Assembly: GCF_024169245.1 (NCBI RefSeq)
Contig: NZ_JALJWP010000001.1
Coordinates: 1,551,501-1,615,500, forward strand
From: Pseudomonas koreensis
GTDB taxonomy: Bacteria > Pseudomonadota > Gammaproteobacteria > Pseudomonadales > Pseudomonadaceae
DNA: 64,000 nt
Direction of reading: 5' to 3'
The notes beneath the pieces were generated by a model. It was not told where the DNA came from and ran no database searches. It was given only the letters and a program-made list of their open reading frames with translations. Positions 3,366-54,410 of the stretch are shown piece after piece. A program made the translations under genes and the position numbers. How positions within the stretch are numbered: position 1 is the stretch's first letter; the number at the start of each line of letters is the position of its first letter.

Positions 3366-3403
3366 AAAAAAACGCCGCCTGCGCTGGCGACAGCACAGGC
3401 GGC
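3366..3403 (-). terminator. Rho-independent terminator of the DUF6124-type gene
   Basis: On the minus strand GCCGCCTG (3403-3396) pairs with CAGGCGGC (3381-3374) and is followed by a run of seven T (3372-3366). It ends the small gene at 3419-3775 and separates it from the methyltransferase. Confidence 0.8.
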
Positions 3404-3418
3404 GATGGTGGCCAGGCC

Positions 3419-3775
3419 TCAGTGCTGCTTCGCTCCAAGACAGTCGATCGAACGGTCCATCATTGCCTTGGCCATTTCCAGCAAATGCCAGACCGAGAAC
3501 ACCATGGCTCGATCCGCGCCCCCGAGCTGGTCACCGCATTGATGGACGGTCACCGAAGCGCAGCGCAGCAGATCGGCAACATACAACTGGGCGTCCTCCA
3601 GCGTCACATCCTCGCTGATGCTGTAGACGCGTTTCTGTCCCGCCAACGTGACCTGAGTGCCTGCCAGGTGCGAGTCGACGGCGCGGCACAGTGCAGAGCG
3701 ATCCTTGAGCAAATCCTCGGTGAACCGCTTGCTGGAGGTAAGGCTGAGTGGCGGATCGGCAAGATTTTTTTCCAT
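3419..3775 (-). CDS. Small DUF6124 (formerly DUF3077)-type protein
   Basis: A 118-residue soluble protein of a family that I recall as common in Pseudomonas and of unknown role. It has a hydrophilic N-terminus of about 50 residues, then the pattern VYSISEDVTLEDAQLYVADLL and two amphipathic helices ending LLEMAKAMMDRS, as usual for DUF3077/DUF6124. A good ribosome binding site (AGGAG, 7 nt before ATG) fixes the start. It is monocistronic, with a terminator right after it. Its 5' region (3836-3993) folds into a structured leader that has a relative ahead of the small gene at 47095-47397. Family assignment is from memory of the sequence pattern. Confidence 0.65.
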   Translation of the reverse strand: MEKNLADPPLSLTSSKRFTEDLLKDRSALCRAVDSHLAGTQVTLAGQKRVYSISEDVTLEDAQLYVADLLRCASVTVHQCGDQLGGADRAMVFSVWHLLEMAKAMMDRSIDCLGAKQH

Positions 3776-3817
3776 GGGTAAACTCCTGACTTCAAGTGGG
3801 AGCCAACCATTTCGCGA

Positions 3818-3979
3818 CTAAACGAGCAGGACGGCGGCTGCACGCAGATCAGTCGCCGGCCGCCAGTTATCGGCGCACTCGAAAGTGCCCTGCGCACAGC
3901 CAATCGGGTAGCTCAAAGCCTCTGCCGAGGTCAGGCCTGACTGCACGCCCAGCGAATCCGGACAACGGAATCCGGTCAC
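3818..3979 (-). CDS. Possible 53-codon leader ORF (or decayed reading frame)
   Basis: A GTG-initiated frame of 53 codons with GC-rich third positions, ending TAG 42 nt before the DUF6124-type gene. It contains the segment GCAQGTFECAD, which resembles DCVWDTLGCAG encoded in the same relative frame by the leader of the gene at 47095. No convincing ribosome binding site is visible, and the paired RNA structure of the region explains the nucleotide conservation at least as well. It could be a translated leader peptide, a remnant of one, or no gene at all. Confidence 0.2.
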   Translation of the reverse strand: MTGFRCPDSLGVQSGLTSAEALSYPIGCAQGTFECADNWRPATDLRAAAVLLV

Positions 3980-3993
3980 TGCAAAACAGTGAC
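3836..3993 (-). promoter_or_regulatory. Candidate structured RNA leader, copy 1
   Basis: Read on the minus strand: hairpin 1 (GTCACTG/CAGTGAC, 3993-3975), hairpin 2 (CCGGA/TCCGG with 8-nt loop, 3975-3958), about 56 nt of other sequence, then a 12-bp stem with two G-T pairs (3901-3890 with 3847-3836). That stem encloses a hairpin GCACT-TTCG-AGTGC that carries one bulged G before two further G-C pairs. The ATG of the DUF6124-type gene lies about 60 nt downstream. The same order, with compensated base changes, occurs at 47457-47630. Function is not known to me. Confidence 0.55.
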
Positions 3994-4371
3994 GAGCGGA
4001 GATTAGCTACCGGATATTTCGGGTACAAGCGGGCAAATTATTCTAGGAATCGTCCTGCAAACCCGCGTGGTTCGGGCTGGCGAAACGATAAAACCTGTGT
4101 AGGAAATATCTGAATTTTGCTAAGGGCGTTGCCTTGATTTGTGCGATCACCTGCTCAGCAGGTGGTGGCCACCTGCCGCTATCGACCTTAGCGCTTATTC
4201 AGTCCGCGCGCCAGTCTGGCCCAGCGTTCACTGACAACCGGGATTCGCGCAATACAAGCCAAGAGGCCGGCGAGCACTTGCGATGAACACAGGGCAGCAC
4301 CTGATAGTTCTTACAGTATCGACACTCGGAAAAAACGCTCATTCTTCACCCAAAGATGAGCAAGGGCGCTT
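3994..4371. other. Intergenic region before the tccC-like gene, with nested hairpins
   Basis: No gene is visible. At 4148-4176 three segments can form two mutually exclusive hairpins: CACCTGC (4148-4154) with GCAGGTG (4158-4164), or GCAGGTGG (4158-4165) with CCACCTGC (4169-4176). A further 5-bp hairpin (CGCTA/TAGCG) follows at 4177-4193. No clear promoter or terminator was recognised. Confidence 0.4.
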
Positions 4372-7185
4372 GTGACCATGAATGTTCACCACGACACCGC
4401 CACGCCGACGCTTTCAGTCATCGACCCTCGTTTGCTGGCGATCCGCAGCGTCGGTTATTGCCGGCATCCGGATGCACCCGCCATCGAATCGCGCATCACC
4501 CGGCAGATCTTTGATGAGGCGGGGCGTCAGGTAGCGTCGTGGGATCAGCGTTTGTACGGCGTTGCGCCCAAGCCGAATCTGGCCACACTCTACGCATTGA
4601 GCGGTCAAGAGTTACTCACAGACAGCGTCGACGCCGGTTGGCAGGTGCGGCTGTTGAATGAAGCGGGTTCGATGTGTTCTGGCTGGGATGCGCGGGGCAG
4701 CCAGAGTCATCGCCAATACGATGATCTGCAGCGACCGCTAGCCCTCACCGAGCAGGCACAGGACGGGCAGTCTCGCGTGGTCGAGCGCTGGATCTATGGA
4801 AAAGCCACCGATGATCGCGCGCTGCACAACCAGTGCGGTCGACCGATCCGCCACGACGACCCGGCCGGCAATCGGCACTTCGATGATTACGGCCTCGGCG
4901 GTGCAGTGGTGGTGGAGTCGCGACGGTTTTTGATCGAACTCGAGACACCTGACTGGCCACTCGATCCCGACCGTCGAGATGCCTGTCTTGAGGAAACAAC
5001 GTACGTCACCCGGCAGACTTTCACTCCAACCGGCGACTTGCAGCATCATATCGACGCGGTTGGCAACCTCCGCACCCAGCATTACAACGTCGCCGGGCAA
5101 TCCTGCGCGACCTGGCTTGTGCAGGCCGGCGAGGGCAGGCAGCCGAAGTGTCTTGTCAGCGCCATTCGCTACAACGCCCAGGGTCAGATCGAAAGTGAAA
5201 CGGCCGGCAACGGCGTCATCGCTCGTGCCGAATACAGCCGCGATGACGGCCGTTTGCTCAGACTGCTCGCCAGTGTCGGCGCGCAAAAGCCGTTGCAGGA
5301 TTTGAATTACATATACGATCCGGTAGGCAACATCGTCAGCCTGGAAGACAAGACTCAAGTCGTGTCCTGGTTCAACAATCAGCGCATCGATCCGGTCAGA
5401 CGGTATCGCTACGACAGCCTTTATCAACTGGTCGAGGCCAGCGGTTGGGAAGTCAGCCAGCCCAGCCATGGTCCGGCCTTGCCGGATCTGCTGCCAACGC
5501 CGCTGGACCCCAATCAACGGCGCAACTACACGCAGAAATTCAACTACGACGCAGCGGGTAATCTGATCACTCGCCAGCATAGCGGTGCGCCGGGTTTTTC
5601 GATGTACACCTCCACTTACAGCAATCGAAGCCTGGCGGAGCGCGATGACGGTTCTTTGCCCGGAGAACCGGAGATAGCGCTGGGATTTGATGCAGCGGGT
5701 AATCAGCTGGAGTTGCAGCGCGGACAGGCCATGTCCTGGAATATACGCAATGAGTTAAGCCGGGTTGTGCAGGTGCGGCGTCAGAATGACAGCGATGACT
5801 ACGAATGTTATCGCTACGACGAGCCTGGCCATCGGTTGCGTAAAACGACAGTCAGTCAAGCTACCGGGCAAACGCTGACAGCGGAGGTTCGTTATCTGCC
5901 TGGTCTCGAGATTCATCGCGAGGGTAACGGTGTCGAGCGCCATGTAATCAGTGTCGACGCCGCGCGTAATCAGGTGCGGGTACTGCACTGGCCAAGCGGG
6001 GCGGAAGGCGACCAACTGCGTTACGGCCTCAGTGATCATCTCGGTTCCAGCACGCTGGAATTGGATGATGGTGCGGGAATTTTGACTCAGGAGCATTATT
6101 ACCCGTTTGGTGGCACGGCGTGCTGGGCGGGGAAAAACTCATTGGTGGCGAAAAACAAAACGATTCGCTACTCAGGTAAAGAGCGGGATGTGACCGGGCT
6201 TTATTATTATGGTTATCGTTATTACGCGTCGTGGTTACAACGCTGGACGAGTCCTGACCCTGGCCGAGATATCGATGGAGTCAATCTTTATGCAATGCTA
6301 GGAAATAGTCCGCTGATTTTCGTTGATAAACAGGGGATGGTCAGAGGTTTGAGCAGCATTTTGAGCGGCGCAAGTGATGCGGAACATGCGCGCAAGTCCC
6401 ATTTCGAATTGCACTTGCTCCCCAGAATAATGGCTAGAAAAGACTCGGATAAGAGTTTTGCCATTGTCAAAATCAAAAGGATGGCGCGCATCCAAAGCGA
6501 TGTGGCTGCGGATGAATTGCTGCAAGCCGCTGTTGATGTCATATCCAGGGCGAAACTGACTTTCAATATAAATCCGGAAAGCATCCCTGAACTAAAAGGT
6601 GATGGCCTCAGGAATATTTGGCATCAGGGGGTTAAACCGGGTTTTGCATCGGAGTTCCGGGACGGTTTCGAAATGGACATGTTTGACTATGTTCATTCTC
6701 CTTCCAAAATAATAAAAGAGTATGGCTCGGTCGATCATCCTAAATTCAGTGGGGATTTCAGGCCTGTTTATGGAGCTCTGAAACTCTCCGCCGGTCTTGC
6801 CAGCGCGGGTGGCGCTTCAGCCTATGGATCTGCTGCCTTCCATCTGAAGGATGAGTCACGTAAATATATGACGTTGATTGGAGCCGACAGCTTCGATCTC
6901 AAGCCTTCAATCAATAATCTGGCTTCATTCGGAAATCTGTATCCGGTGTTTCACGAAATGCAACGCGAAACATGGCAAGTATTGACAAGGATTATGTCGG
7001 GTGCCGAAACGGATCTGGCTTCGCCTGATGAATACGTGGAGTGGCAATCTCATAACAGCGTCAAGTGGAAAGACATGACGAGTCTGGTTTTTCAGCGAAG
7101 AGAAGATATGGAAAACATAATTGACCAGGGGAATACCCGGGCTTTTCTGAAAAAAAATTCTATTACTCCAAGTTATGTCGGGTGA
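4372..7185 (+). CDS. tccC: Orphan TccC-like RHS toxin with DUF3626-like C-terminus
   Basis: A 937-residue Tc toxin C-subunit. The N-terminus (PTLSVIDPRLLAIRSVGY, then RITRQIFDEAGRQ) is the TccC signature, followed by YD/RHS repeats (YNAQGQIESE, YDPVGNIVS, YDAAGNLI). The RHS core lies at about residues 596-650 (YSGKERDVTGLYYYGYRYY to LYAMLGNSPLIFVD); in this family the shell self-cleaves after the core and releases the variable C-terminus. That domain, about residues 655-937, is visibly AT-richer. It contains RPVYGALKL, YGSAAFHLK and EYVEWQ, a pattern I recall from DUF3626 and which resembles the Arg/Ser/Glu layout of ADP-ribosyltransferases. No TcA or TcB gene is in the window. GTG 4372 has AGGG 5-6 nt upstream; ATG 4378 is an alternative start. 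Confidence 0.85.
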   Translation: MTMNVHHDTATPTLSVIDPRLLAIRSVGYCRHPDAPAIESRITRQIFDEAGRQVASWDQRLYGVAPKPNLATLYALSGQELLTDSVDAGWQVRLLNEAGSMCSGWDARGSQSHRQYDDLQRPLALTEQAQDGQSRVVERWIYGKATDDRALHNQCGRPIRHDDPAGNRHFDDYGLGGAVVVESRRFLIELETPDWPLDPDRRDACLEETTYVTRQTFTPTGDLQHHIDAVGNLRTQHYNVAGQSCATWLVQAGEGRQPKCLVSAIRYNAQGQIESETAGNGVIARAEYSRDDGRLLRLLASVGAQKPLQDLNYIYDPVGNIVSLEDKTQVVSWFNNQRIDPVRRYRYDSLYQLVEASGWEVSQPSHGPALPDLLPTPLDPNQRRNYTQKFNYDAAGNLITRQHSGAPGFSMYTSTYSNRSLAERDDGSLPGEPEIALGFDAAGNQLELQRGQAMSWNIRNELSRVVQVRRQNDSDDYECYRYDEPGHRLRKTTVSQATGQTLTAEVRYLPGLEIHREGNGVERHVISVDAARNQVRVLHWPSGAEGDQLRYGLSDHLGSSTLELDDGAGILTQEHYYPFGGTACWAGKNSLVAKNKTIRYSGKERDVTGLYYYGYRYYASWLQRWTSPDPGRDIDGVNLYAMLGNSPLIFVDKQGMVRGLSSILSGASDAEHARKSHFELHLLPRIMARKDSDKSFAIVKIKRMARIQSDVAADELLQAAVDVISRAKLTFNINPESIPELKGDGLRNIWHQGVKPGFASEFRDGFEMDMFDYVHSPSKIIKEYGSVDHPKFSGDFRPVYGALKLSAGLASAGGASAYGSAAFHLKDESRKYMTLIGADSFDLKPSINNLASFGNLYPVFHEMQRETWQVLTRIMSGAETDLASPDEYVEWQSHNSVKWKDMTSLVFQRREDMENIIDQGNTRAFLKKNSITPSYVG

Positions 7186-46264: not shown

Positions 46265-46537
46265 CTATGGCCATTGCCGCCGTGCATGCAGGACACGAAG
46301 CACTTCAACACAGTCTTTTTTGATTACGTAGACGATGACGTAGTTGGAGGCTGCAACGATTTCACGTGTGCCGTCGACCTTGCCCTTTTTGTACAAGGTT
46401 GGGCGCTGTCTTGCGATTTCCCCTTTTGATTCGAACATTTCATCGAGGTCCGCAGCCGCGTCGGGGTTGTCCTGGCTGATGCGGTTCATTATCCGGTCTC
46501 GGTCAGCAAGCGCTTCCGGGCGCCAGACCAACCTCAT
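46265..46537 (-). CDS. ParE/RelE-family toxin
   Basis: A 90-residue toxin of the RelE/ParE superfamily: LVWRPEALADRDRIMNRI at the N-terminus, PTLYKKGKVDGTREIVA in the middle, YVIVYVIKKDCVEVLRVLHARRQWP at the end. The Arg-X-X-Leu-His-X-Arg pattern is typical of ParE-like gyrase toxins. Its ATG overlaps the antitoxin stop codon (ATGA). The order antitoxin then toxin is the common one. Confidence 0.88.
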   Translation of the reverse strand: MRLVWRPEALADRDRIMNRISQDNPDAAADLDEMFESKGEIARQRPTLYKKGKVDGTREIVAASNYVIVYVIKKDCVEVLRVLHARRQWP

Positions 46538-46983
46538 CAGCGCCCTCGTTGACGCAGGGCATCACGCTTGGCGGCGAATATTCGGCGAGCGTCTGCATCG
46601 CTGACACTAGGTCGTGGATCATCGATGCTGATCTGGACCTGGCGTTTGAACCATTCTTCATAAGCGGCGGCTTCATGCGCTTGCTTCAACGCTTCGGAGC
46701 GATCAGGGCGGGCGTAAGTTTTCAGTTGCAGCGGATCATAACCGGAGGCATCCACGTTGAATTGGCTAATGCCCAAGCCTTGCAAATAGGTCACCAGCGT
46801 CTCCATTTTTTTGAACAGCCGCAATTGACCACTACGCTGAGCGGTCAGCTTATATATGTTCCTGCCTTGATGAATTTCTATCGACCAGCCACCCGATTTG
46901 GCGACGATATTCGTGCCGCTGACAGAACCGTTTTCAACCAAGTGAACAAGGGTGCTGTGATCGATGGTTTCAGTGCTGGTCAT
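46537..46983 (-). CDS. Antitoxin with ParC-like N-domain and PaaA2-like tail
   Basis: A 148-residue partner of the ParE-type toxin. The last 50 residues (AAAYEEWFKRQVQISIDDPRP then SVSDADARRIF) match the toxin-binding part of PaaA2-type antitoxins. The first 90 residues (LVHLVENGSVSGTNIVAKSG, AQRSGQLRLFKKMETLVTYL) form a separate domain that I recall from ParC-family partition-associated proteins, so the antitoxin is larger than usual. ATG 46983 is chosen; the frame is open 20 codons further. Domain identities are from memory. Confidence 0.72.
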   Translation of the reverse strand: MTSTETIDHSTLVHLVENGSVSGTNIVAKSGGWSIEIHQGRNIYKLTAQRSGQLRLFKKMETLVTYLQGLGISQFNVDASGYDPLQLKTYARPDRSEALKQAHEAAAYEEWFKRQVQISIDDPRPSVSDADARRIFAAKRDALRQRGR

Positions 46984-47094
46984 AAAAGCGAGCCCTTCGC
47001 TGAGTGATGGCTCCCATCGTACGCAATCAATAGTAGTTTGCAAAATTCGACTCCTTGCGGTGCACAGGACGTGGACGGCGATATGTTTTGTTCG

Positions 47095-47397
47095 TTACTG
47101 GGCCGGCGCTTTCCAGTTGAGCATTTGTGTCTGTGCGACTTGCAGCAGGTCGCAGCCGTCCTGGGTCAGTAGATAGAGGGCGTGGGTGAGGTGGGGGATG
47201 TCTTCGACGTCGGCTTGTTTGAAGTTGAGGCAGTACAGGGTTTGCAGAAGGTCGCTGGAGGCGCGCAGGCGCTGGACGGCGCACTCGAGGATGTCCTGCG
47301 GGTTGGCTTGTGTGTCGATGATCAGCGGTTTGCTGTCGGTGAGGTTTGATTCGAGTGGGCGGTAGCGATCGGCGATGTATTGACGGCGTGCTTTCAT
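47095..47397 (-). CDS. Small Pseudomonas-type hypothetical protein
   Basis: A 100-residue soluble protein without recognised function, mainly helical: DSKPLIIDTQANPQDILECA, LRASSDLLQTLYCLNF, and LTHALYLLTQDGCDLL. The pattern resembles the DUF6124/DUF3077 protein at 3419-3775 only loosely, but both have the same type of leader. ATG 47397 overlaps the stop of an upstream open frame (ATGA). The 111 nt to the antitoxin gene downstream show no terminator. Confidence 0.55.
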   Translation of the reverse strand: MKARRQYIADRYRPLESNLTDSKPLIIDTQANPQDILECAVQRLRASSDLLQTLYCLNFKQADVEDIPHLTHALYLLTQDGCDLLQVAQTQMLNWKAPAQ

Positions 47398-47675
47398 TTT
47401 TCGACCCCCAGATGCTGCAAATGAAGCCGCCACATCGTGACCAAGCGACAGGAGGCGACTGTGTTCGGGTTGGTCAACCGGTGAGGATCGTGCACATACC
47501 CGGCACACCCGAGGGTGTCCCAAACACAGTCACCATAAACTGCAGGCAAGTGAGTGCCCGCGGCATACAGTGCATGCGTATACACGAACCAATCGGGTGA
47601 CCAAGCCCGAGTCGCTGAACAGACAGCGACAGCCACGACTATAGGTTCGCACCACCCGCTCGTGATAGCCGACAA
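47394..47675 (-). CDS. Possible leader ORF coupled to the small gene at 47095
   Basis: An open frame of 93 codons that ends TGA inside the ATG of the next gene (ATGA overlap). The C-terminal part MWRLHLQHLGVEK and the segment DCVWDTLGCAG look protein-like. The leader of 3419-3775 encodes a similar SCSFSREMVGSHLKSG, but in a different frame from its GCAQGTFECAD part, so the reading frame there is broken. The region may have evolved from a coding sequence, or the similarity may only reflect conserved RNA. The start codon is unclear and no ribosome binding site was seen. Confidence 0.3.
   Translation of the reverse strand: MSAITSGWCEPIVVAVAVCSATRAWSPDWFVYTHALYAAGTHLPAVYGDCVWDTLGCAGYVHDPHRLTNPNTVASCRLVTMWRLHLQHLGVEK
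47457..47630 (-). promoter_or_regulatory. Candidate structured RNA leader, copy 2
   Basis: Read on the minus strand: hairpin 1 (GTCGCTG/CAGCGAC, 47630-47611), hairpin 2 (TCGGG/CCCGA with 8-nt loop, 47610-47593), about 61 nt, then a 13-bp stem with one G-T pair (47531-47519 with 47469-47457) enclosing ACACC-CTCG-GGTGT with one bulged G before two G-C pairs. The next ATG (47397) is 60 nt downstream. Compared with copy 1, base pairs change on both sides in hairpin 1 (A-T to G-C), hairpin 2 and the tetraloop hairpin. Confidence 0.58.
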
Positions 47676-53617: not shown

Positions 53618-54100
53618 TTAACGGTGGCGATAGTACTTGTGATGCTTGCGGTGGCCGTAGGCATGGCCGCGACCTGGATGACCACGGTCGCGGTAATAGC
53701 GGCGATCATCATGGCGGTCATAACGACGATCATTGTCGTCACTCTTGTTGCCCATGTAGTTACCCAGCGCGCCACCTGCGCCGCCACCAGCGGCGGAGCC
53801 GATCAGGCTGCCGGTGGTGCCGCCGAGGCTGCGGCCGACGACGTTACCGCCGGCTGCACCCAGTGCACCGCCGATGGCCGCTTCGCCACGGCTGCGCTTG
53901 TCTGCGCCGACCGCACTACCACCCGCGCCGCCCAGGGCTGCGCCGATGGTGGAACCTGTATTGCCGCCTAACGATTGACCGACGACCGAGCCAAGAACCC
54001 CGCCCAATGCGCCGCCCACACCTGCTTCGGTGGTGCCTCCGGCAGAAGCGAAGCCACTGACCAGGCCAAGGGACAACAAGAGAATCGAGGAGAACTTCAT
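53618..54100 (-). CDS. Glycine-zipper envelope protein
   Basis: A 160-residue exported protein with signal peptide (ILLLSLGLVSGFASAGG), two glycine-zipper segments (GVGGALGGVLGSVVGQSLGG; IGGALGAAGGNVVGRSLGG) and a very basic and His/Tyr-rich tail (DRRYDRHDDRRYY). Glycine-zipper proteins insert in or line the outer membrane. Function unknown; a stress-related outer-membrane role is typical of relatives. Confidence 0.78.
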   Translation of the reverse strand: MKFSSILLLSLGLVSGFASAGGTTEAGVGGALGGVLGSVVGQSLGGNTGSTIGAALGGAGGSAVGADKRSRGEAAIGGALGAAGGNVVGRSLGGTTGSLIGSAAGGGAGGALGNYMGNKSDDNDRRYDRHDDRRYYRDRGHPGRGHAYGHRKHHKYYRHR

Positions 54101-54164
54101 AGAGGATGAGCCTCAAAGGGATGACGGCGCCGATCCTGAGGCTCTGCATTGGGCGTGACAATCA

Positions 54165-54292
54165 AAATCCGACGAATAACACGACTTGTATACAATATTG
54201 CAAGTTACTGTTTTTTCACCGGAACTTAACCGATTTTCGCCGGTCTTTAGCTACTTCGGACAGGCCGTTTTTATACAAAAACGGCCTTTTTT
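54165..54292 (+). ncRNA. Candidate small RNA with terminator
   Basis: A strong terminator (GGCCGTTTTT, loop ATAC, AAAAACGGCC, six T; 54263-54292) lies on the plus strand with no plus-strand gene upstream. A TTGTATACAA palindrome (54186-54195) and an AT-rich stretch precede it. A short transcript of about 100 nt would explain the terminator. The 5' end is a guess. Confidence 0.35.
54262..54292 (+). terminator. Orphan Rho-independent terminator
   Basis: 10-bp stem GGCCGTTTTT/AAAAACGGCC with 4-nt loop and T-run 54287-54292. No recognised gene ends before it on this strand. Confidence 0.75.
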
Positions 54293-54345
54293 GTGGGCGT
54301 TTGAAAAGTGCTAGCCGTAAGAAGTGTATTGAATGTCCTACCGCC

Positions 54346-54410
54346 TTCGCAAGCAAGCTCGCTCCCACATTTGAACTGCATTCCAATGTGGGAGCGAGCT
54401 TGCTCGCGAA
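54346..54410. repeat. REP-like doublet, family C
   Basis: TTCGCAAGCAAGCTCGCTCC ... faces GTGGGAGCGAGCTTGCTCGC; the arms carry the same matched changes (CAAGC/GCTTG) relative to other copies. Downstream of the molybdoenzyme gene. Confidence 0.87.

What the first reader, a model, noticed from the sequence alone, without database searches (positions are those of the whole stretch)
3836..3993. Structured RNA leader with a diverged second copy 43 kb away
On the minus strand, before the small gene at 3419-3775, I find in order a 7-bp hairpin, a hairpin with an 8-nt loop, and a 12-bp stem enclosing a tetraloop hairpin with one bulged G. The leader at 47457-47630 has the same order. Pairs differ in a compensated way: GTCACTG/CAGTGAC against GTCGCTG/CAGCGAC; CCGGA/TCCGG against TCGGG/CCCGA; GCACT-TTCG-AGTGC against ACACC-CTCG-GGTGT, with the same bulged G. 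The gap from the last stem to the start codon is almost equal (about 60 nt). This is the pattern of a conserved cis-acting RNA. I do not know a named class with this layout.
Basis: partly seen in the sequence, partly recalled or inferred. Interest (0 to 1): 0.85.

Follow-up and report, generated by a model that had tools for sequence, protein, structure and literature searches.

The report
Phage-type C4 antisense RNA modules
Both leaders are copies of a known phage gene lock, the C4 antisense RNA, and this Pseudomonas chromosome carries about thirty of them, most with their own pairing code and set before a small gene of unknown function.

Summary
The two leaders are real and homologous, but they have a name. 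Each is a P1-type C4 module: promoter, site-1 hairpins (Rfam c4-a1b1), C4 antisense RNA (RF01695), site-2 targets, ribosome-binding site, small gene. Copy 2 scores 65.2 bits as C4 (cut-off 45). Copy 1 scores 27.7 and is decaying: two near relatives have deleted half of C4 but kept the gene. The genome holds 32 such modules. In 30 of 32 the gene behind C4 is DUF6124 or DUF3077. In 26 of 32, two C4 segments each make at least 7 consecutive pairs with the stretch before their own gene (88 of 992 non-cognate pairs do); the same words recur at site 1 upstream. There are 30 two-part codes in 32 loci, and near-identical proteins mostly carry different codes (23 of 25 paralogue pairs). C4 exceeds its cut-off in 109 of 119 genomes of the genus, but in 17 of 273 others of the class. 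The RNA class is known, and multi-copy C4 was reported in Acinetobacter. What I did not find in print is the link to DUF6124/DUF3077 and the locus-specific codes. What the small proteins do is unknown. Verdict: new variant of a known kind.

The parts
4023..4028 (-). copy 1: -35 element TTGTAC
   Evidence: aligned with the -35 of 31 other modules; P1 P1c4 promoter at the same place
4000..4005 (-). copy 1: -10 element TAATCT, 17-nt spacer
   Evidence: TA....T in 32 of 32 modules, spacer 17 in 30 of 32; the generic consensus scan found no promoter here
3975..3993 (-). copy 1: 5' hairpin GTCACTG/CAGTGAC (part of c4-a1b1, RF03163)
   Evidence: c4-a1b1 3955-4006, 30.6 bits, E 7e-6, below cut-off 46.7; covariation
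3957..3974 (-). copy 1: site-1 target hairpin (P1 a1); its loop no longer carries the C4 junction code
3830..3907 (-). copy 1: degenerate C4 antisense RNA
   Evidence: 27.7 bits, E 0.0035, below cut-off 45; orthologues intact in L121 and L123-L128, half deleted in L118 and L119
3814..3822 (-). copy 1: site-2 target (P1 a2) TTTAGTCGC, still matches C4 segment GACTGA at 3854-3849
3783..3787 (-). copy 1: Shine-Dalgarno AGGAG (P1 b2 position); match to the C4 loop lost
3419..3775 (-). copy 1: gene behind the leader, DUF6124 protein of 118 aa
   Evidence: PF19619 40.4 bits, cut-off 27
3373..3404 (-). copy 1: terminator-like hairpin after the gene
   Evidence: 14-pair stem then T run
47662..47667 (-). 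copy 2: weak -35 TATCAC, 18-nt spacer
   Evidence: no promoter in the generic scan
47638..47643 (-). copy 2: -10 TATAGT
47611..47630 (-). copy 2: 5' hairpin GTCGCTG/CAGCGAC
   Evidence: c4-a1b1 47590-47644, 33.4 bits, E 9.7e-7, below cut-off 46.7
47593..47610 (-). copy 2: site-1 hairpin (P1 a1) with TTGGTCA
47579..47587 (-). copy 2: site-1 second target (P1 b1) TCGTGTATA, pairs with the C4 P3 loop
47448..47540 (-). copy 2: C4 antisense RNA; junction TGACCAA 47476-47470, P3 loop CGATCCTCA 47490-47482
   Evidence: RF01695 65.2 bits, cut-off 45
47438..47444 (-). copy 2: site-2 target (P1 a2) TTGGTCA
47402..47410 (-). copy 2: site-2 second target (P1 b2) TGGGGGTCG over the ribosome-binding site
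47095..47397 (-). copy 2: gene behind the leader, 100 aa, family without a Pfam model
   Evidence: no Pfam match; relatives in 35 of 99 genomes, own included; C4 over cut-off in 18 of 20 relative loci scanned, out of 30 fetched

Best explanation
Each leader is a P1 immI-type C4 module. One sigma-70-type promoter makes one transcript: site-1 hairpins, C4, site-2 targets, small gene. C4 is expected to be cut out at the GG at the foot of its long stem, as RNase P does in P1. The C4 junction segment (7 nt) pairs with the hairpin in front of the gene, and the C4 P3 loop pairs with the Shine-Dalgarno region, so ribosomes cannot start on the DUF6124/DUF3077 gene. Site 1 carries the same two target words and probably acts as a decoy that ties up C4, as IsrK does in Gifsy-1. 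In this chromosome 32 modules carry 30 different two-part codes, so many modules should lock mainly their own gene. Copy 2 is intact; copy 1 has lost most of its lock. Shown here: identity, order, promoter position, covariation, cognate complementarity, code diversity, distribution. Inferred: processing, repression, decoy role, trans action.
For: Rfam matches. 31 C4 over cut-off plus copy 1 in the genome, with a c4-a1b1 match just upstream of 31 of these 32. DUF6124 (29, one broken) or DUF3077 (1) directly behind 30 of 32. Cognate pairing above all 20000 permutations at four contacts in 32 loci: hairpin site 1 -19.2 vs -12.4 kcal/mol, hairpin site 2 -11.6 vs -8.5; loop to site 1 score 17.4 vs 12.0, loop to the stretch before the start codon 19.1 vs 11.8. 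Both site-2 contacts reach 7 consecutive pairs in 26 of 32 modules and in 88 of 992 non-cognate combinations; only copy 1 falls below 6 pairs at any contact. The same in 87 non-redundant loci including other Pseudomonas, other genera and P1 (0 of 5000 permutations, z 18.9 to 29.3). P1 record: same order of promoter, a1, b1, c4, a2, b2, icd. Structure covariation. GG at the C4 foot in 32 of 32. In 23 of 25 paralogue pairs (drawn from 10 loci) with equally long, at least 95% identical proteins the codes differ; L016 and L020 proteins are 100% identical.
Against: No expression or processing data for this genome. By duplex energy the cognate partner is best or tied best for only 6 of 32 at the site-2 hairpin (22 of 32 at site 1). 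A third possible contact, the 3' arm of the long stem with the GC-rich stretch before the Shine-Dalgarno, is only weakly cognate (-13.2 vs -12.2, 27 of 20000 permutations as good, best in 2 of 32). 12 of 32 C4 RNAs have at least one other target at 90% or more of the cognate score, so insulation is partial. Copy 1 has lost C4 integrity yet its gene is kept, so the lock is dispensable there. A terminator between site 1 and C4, which a separate decoy RNA would need, stands out in only 5 of 32. Several genomes have many C4 matches and almost no DUF6124 (for example 33 and 1, 28 and 1), so DUF6124 is not the target everywhere. Permutations do not correct for relatedness.
Confidence: 0.82

Rival explanations
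1. Cis-only attenuator: no free C4 is made; within one transcript the C4 core pairs either with site 1 or with site 2, and the choice sets translation or Rho-dependent termination.
For: All partners lie in one leader with constant order; the pairings with site 1 and site 2 use the same C4 segments and exclude each other. Gifsy-1 isrK-orf45 shows alternative folds of one transcript (passages of PMC4825925).
Against: The P1 and Acinetobacter C4 RNAs are processed (passages of PMC5320573); the fold of C4 itself covaries strongly. Near-identical genes carry different codes, which is easiest to understand if C4 can reach other transcripts.
Confidence: 0.2
2. RNA-antitoxin/toxin pairs: the small proteins inhibit growth (as P1 Icd is annotated to inhibit cell division) and C4 is the antisense antitoxin, a type I-like system spread as a phage moron.
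For: DUF6124 stands where icd stands in P1; multi-copy, dispersed, also in viral contigs; copy-specific codes.
Against: No toxicity data; the predicted fold is a helical hairpin without a significant match (best E 0.76); membrane-toxin features were not sought. Copy 1 keeps its gene while losing C4, which a strong toxin would hardly allow.
Confidence: 0.2
3. Structured leader bound by a ligand or protein (riboswitch-like cis element).
For: Compensated stems in both leaders.
Against: The junction and loop, which would bind a ligand, vary from locus to locus together with two target sites. It matches a named antisense family.
Confidence: 0.03

Closest known systems
Phage P1/P7 immI operon (C4 antisense RNA, icd, ant)
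   Same: Promoter, a1, b1, C4, a2, b2, start codon in the same order; both pairing segments; 68.8 bits for P1 C4 against 65.2 for copy 2
   Different: The first gene is DUF6124, DUF3077 or another small family instead of icd, and no ant was recognised among the families listed for the flanks; chromosomal and about 30 copies
Rfam C4 RF01695 and c4-a1b1 RF03163
   Same: Copy 2 and 30 other loci exceed the C4 cut-off
   Different: Copy 1 is below both cut-offs; only 12 site-1 copies exceed 46.7 bits. The CUAguCU start of c4-a1b1 lies on the promoter -10
Acinetobacter baumannii Group 1 C4-like sRNAs (PMC5320573, passages seen)
   Same: Many C4 RNAs dispersed in one genome, with variable pairing loops
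   Different: In the passages seen the targets were left open; here each C4 but the decayed copy 1 has a matching target in front of the next gene
Gifsy-1 IsrK-orf45-anrP (PMC4825925, passages seen)
   Same: A leader RNA complementary to the following RNA controls translation downstream; the isrK model matches at site 1 in some relatives (51.3 bits at L133, cut-off 50; 35.1 in P1)
   Different: An antirepressor gene follows there; a terminator after site 1 is not clearly present here

Membership tests
C4 antisense RNA (RF01695) | score at or above the curated cut-off of 45 bits | tested here: met
   copy 2: 65.2 bits. Copy 1 fails: 27.7 bits; it is described as a decayed relative, not filed as a member
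C4 antisense RNA (RF01695) | three stems (P1, P2 with tetraloop, P3) with compensatory changes | tested here: met
   27 pairs, 13 with double changes, 0 of 500 shuffles as high; P3 weakest at 84.7% paired
C4 antisense RNA (RF01695) | two segments complementary to targets upstream and at the ribosome-binding site | tested here: met
   copy 2 and the set of 32; in copy 1 both loop contacts are lost and the site-1 hairpin code has changed
C4 antisense RNA (RF01695) | cut out of the transcript by RNase P | not testable with these tools
   GG at the stem foot in 32 of 32; no RNA data
c4-a1b1 (RF03163) | score at or above 46.7 bits | tested here: not met
   copy 1 30.6, copy 2 33.4 bits; 12 of the other modules pass
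P1 immI operon | order promoter-a1-b1-c4-a2-b2-first gene | tested here: met
P1 immI operon | antirepressor gene (ant) in the operon | tested here: not met
   no antirepressor among the families listed for 55 flanking ORFs of 31 loci (66 families matched, 25 shown; rough ORF choice)
IsrK (RF01394) | score at or above 50 bits | tested here: not met
   no match up to E 5 in either window leader; one relative, L133, reaches 51.3
Type I toxin-antitoxin | the protein is toxic when not repressed | not testable with these tools
   needs expression

The most novel reading that the evidence does not exclude
Pseudomonas chromosomes carry a repertoire of about 30 partly insulated RNA locks over near-identical small helical proteins. 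Proteins are kept alike while lock codes are driven apart, so each lock is best opened by its own decoy RNA or by an incoming phage RNA of the same code. The array would then work as a sensor or immunity bank against phages with C4/IsrK circuits.
Probability: 0.12. Interest if true: 0.85.

Novelty: new variant of a known kind. Interest (0 to 1): 0.6.

Why it matters
It gives a likely target to a large set of C4 RNAs, and a handle on two families of unknown function (DUF6124, DUF3077). One genome with some 30 natural antisense-target pairs, many over nearly the same protein, is a ready test bed for how RNA pairs stay insulated, and for whether bacteria keep phage immunity RNAs as their own regulators or defences.

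Tried and rejected
Riboswitch or other cis element: rejected because Rfam names the RNA and its loops vary together with separate target sites. Protein-coding explanation of the leader: not supported, because the stems covary. DUF6124 as phage or plasmid gene: 1 of 50,697 phage records and 0 of 72,556 plasmid records match one family member by tblastn, but 21 of 80 C4-like loci in viral contigs carry it, so it also rides in phage-like DNA. Common neighbour gene: 55 flanking ORFs gave no listed Pfam family in more than two members; BLAST later showed a recurrent family of large proteins beside some modules. Some ORFs were wrong-strand picks (for example L001:1-879). Terminator between site 1 and C4: weak, 5 of 32. 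Structure: DUF6124 model mean pLDDT 70, helical hairpin 59-115 well predicted, no significant PDB match (best E 0.76); copy-2 protein pLDDT 64. DUF6124 against the copy-2 family by profiles: no relation detected, shallow alignments. In one search minus-strand loci were read in the wrong orientation; corrected. L093 was dropped from the pairing analysis because its C4 could not be placed; L099, L102 and L111 were left out as short loci. In one search the L123 row shows unrelated sequence and was not used. The junction of L020 is one letter shorter and was set by hand; its pairs count as different either way.

Not in print, as far as searched: 'DUF6124' (0 papers), 'DUF3077' (1, a furfural-tolerance mutant list), 'C4 antisense' with Pseudomonas putida (1), with Rfam and Pseudomonas (2), alone (17, 15 listed), 'RF01695' with Pseudomonas (2). 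No passage that I saw links C4 to these genes; of most listed papers I saw only the listing. The library lacks most subscription papers, and supplements could not be read.

Full report
What is there. On the minus strand, in front of genes 3419-3775 and 47095-47397, lie two leaders with the same parts in the same order. Rfam names both parts. Copy 2 is a C4 antisense RNA (RF01695) at 65.2 bits, above the cut-off of 45; its upstream hairpins match c4-a1b1 (RF03163) at 33.4 bits, below 46.7. Copy 1 matches both families in the same places, but below both cut-offs (30.6 and 27.7 bits).

Copies in the genome. The window lies in a 5.97-Mb genome; close protein relatives name the genus as Pseudomonas. 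It has 31 C4 RNAs above the cut-off, plus copy 1; one further weak match (17.3 bits) was set aside. A c4-a1b1 match sits just upstream of 31 of these 32; 12 c4-a1b1 matches pass their own cut-off. The 32 leaders align from promoter to start codon. The -10 reads TA....T in 32 of 32 and the spacer is 17 nt in 30 of 32; phage P1 has its annotated P1c4 promoter at the same place. A generic promoter scan found nothing in either window leader, so the promoter rests on alignment and on P1. The gene behind C4 is DUF6124 in 29 of 32 (one of them broken) and DUF3077 in one; copy 2 and one more locus have genes without a match to either family. Three DUF6124 matches of the genome are not directly behind a C4.

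The pairing code. In the P1 record the order is a1, b1, C4, a2, b2, icd, with b2 just before the icd start. The Pseudomonas modules have the same sites. The 7-nt junction of C4 matches a hairpin upstream and a hairpin just behind C4. The C4 P3 loop matches a stretch after the upstream hairpin and the stretch before the start codon, in 21 of 32 with Shine-Dalgarno-type letters; examples are GTTCCTTGATT with AATCAAGGAGC in L001 (11 pairs, one wobble) and 13 consecutive pairs, two of them wobble, in L011. Over 32 loci each contact is on average stronger with its own partner than in any of 20000 permutations. Both site-2 contacts reach 7 consecutive pairs in 26 of 32, and in 88 of 992 non-cognate combinations. 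The same holds in groups of 30, 21, 21 and 16 loci (own genome, other Pseudomonas genomes, orthologues, other genera and P1) and in all 87 non-redundant loci (0 of 5000). There are 19 junction words and 30 two-part codes in 32 loci. 20 of 32 C4 RNAs have no other target at 90% of the cognate score; 12 do. By duplex energy alone the cognate partner is unbeaten in 22 of 32 at the site-1 hairpin, but in only 6 of 32 at the site-2 hairpin; a third possible contact is weak.

Like proteins, unlike locks. Among paralogue pairs with equally long and at least 95% identical proteins, 23 of 25 differ in the code, 21 in both parts; the 25 pairs come from 10 loci and are not independent. L016 and L020 encode identical proteins with different codes. 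Relatedness alone therefore does not explain the match of antisense and target; changes must have been compensated at several places.

Structure. On 30 C4 sequences 13 of 27 pairs show double changes, with 79 double-changed cells against 20.7 in shuffles; slid structures drop to 34-43% paired. Site 1 gives the same picture. P3 is the weakest stem (84.7%).

Copy 1 is decaying. Orthologues with 60-82% identical proteins (L121, L123-L128) have C4 at 60-78 bits, while L122 (76%) has no match. Those with 98-99% identical proteins (L118-L120) have no C4 match at E 0.05, and in L118 and L119 a deletion removes the end of site 1 and the first half of C4 while the ribosome-binding site and the gene stay. 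In the window copy the junction still matches site 2, but the site-1 hairpin code and the loop matches are gone. For copy 2, 18 of 20 relative loci scanned, of 30 fetched, have C4 above the cut-off.

Distribution. C4 above cut-off occurs in 109 of 119 genomes of the genus, own genome included, median 13 matches per genome, 46 genomes with 20 or more, 16 at the scoring limit of 33. In the rest of the class 17 of 273 genomes have it, with 1 to 6 matches under a limit of 15. DUF6124 occurs in 56 of 80 genomes of the genus, and its counts follow C4 counts (Spearman 0.87, not corrected for kinship); none of the 80 has DUF6124 without C4, but some have many C4 matches and almost no DUF6124, so other genes are also behind C4. 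A pattern scan of viral contigs, made from the Pseudomonas consensus, gave 106 stretches; in the 80 listed I parsed 80 C4-like sites in 79. By profiles built here the gene behind was a ~52-aa family in 27, DUF6124 in 21, DUF3077 in 8, the copy-2 family in 3, unclassified in 17 and without a clear frame in 4. In five contigs with DUF6124 modules, from which I scanned selected ORFs, the module lies between a CI-like repressor and mutS (L196, L202), or in contigs with head, terminase or tail genes nearby (L217, L180, L211). In the chromosome most flanks differ from copy to copy, except that some modules adjoin a family of large proteins. In 20 of the pairs listed the homology between copies starts about 177 to 256 nt before C4 and ends near the stop codon. 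This looks like a moron-type cassette that moves with phages and settles in chromosomes; how it moves was not found.

Mechanism. Shown elsewhere: P1 C4 is cut by RNase P and pairs at the ribosome-binding site, and Acinetobacter has many apparently processed C4-like RNAs (passages of PMC5320573); IsrK of Gifsy-1, whose model overlaps site 1 in some relatives, acts in trans to switch on a downstream frame (passages of PMC4825925; review passages of PMC12197685). Inferred here: C4 of each module blocks translation of its small gene, and site 1 titrates C4. A cis-only switch remains possible. What the small proteins do is open: a predicted helical hairpin without a significant structural match.

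Known or new. The RNA class and its site-1 motif are known (PMC2864571, table entry seen), and the Acinetobacter paper says that C4 was predicted in Pseudomonadales (passage). I found no paper linking C4 to DUF6124 or DUF3077. The variant is the chromosomal bank of locus-specific locks over near-identical small genes.

Noticed in passing
L165:3561-7439, L165:8526-11990, L166:4082-7435, L168:4396-8733, L169:4578-7778: Several modules (L001, L003, L017, L020, L029) are followed on the same strand, 180-362 nt after the DUF6124 stop, by large proteins; those seen whole have 1066-1445 aa, share a ~600-aa N-terminal part (27% only for L169) and differ in the C-terminal part (beta-propeller, Ig-like, RCC1). 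A C4-controlled operon is possible.
   Followed up: partly
L167:4679-9460: The L009/L010 pair of modules flanks a helicase like the anti-phage protein ProA (1457.7 bits, cut-off 1500).
   Followed up: no
window 4372-7185: A protein with an RHS core (TIGR03696, 79 bits) lies divergent to copy 1.
   Followed up: no
window 46265-47043: A ParE-type toxin gene and, just upstream of it, a gene with a sub-cut-off PaaA2 match (26.3 bits, cut-off 27) follow the copy-2 gene on the same strand.
   Followed up: no
window 54000-54402: P34 sRNA, Rfam RF02405, 170.7 bits.
   Followed up: no
L066, L067, L078, L085 and others: Another family behind C4 in Pseudomonas: ~52-aa proteins starting like MHALNPSKIRAAAHRAMALAALHANSSL; also behind 27 of 80 viral C4-like sites.
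   Followed up: partly
L073, L075, L080: A 175-aa protein with a WFxARDLxRLL stretch (BRO-N-like, recalled, not tested) behind other Pseudomonas C4 RNAs.
   Followed up: no
just before the -35 in G000 modules: A conserved block with AGAATCCGCCGG in 22 of 32 modules, possibly a protein-binding site.
   Followed up: no
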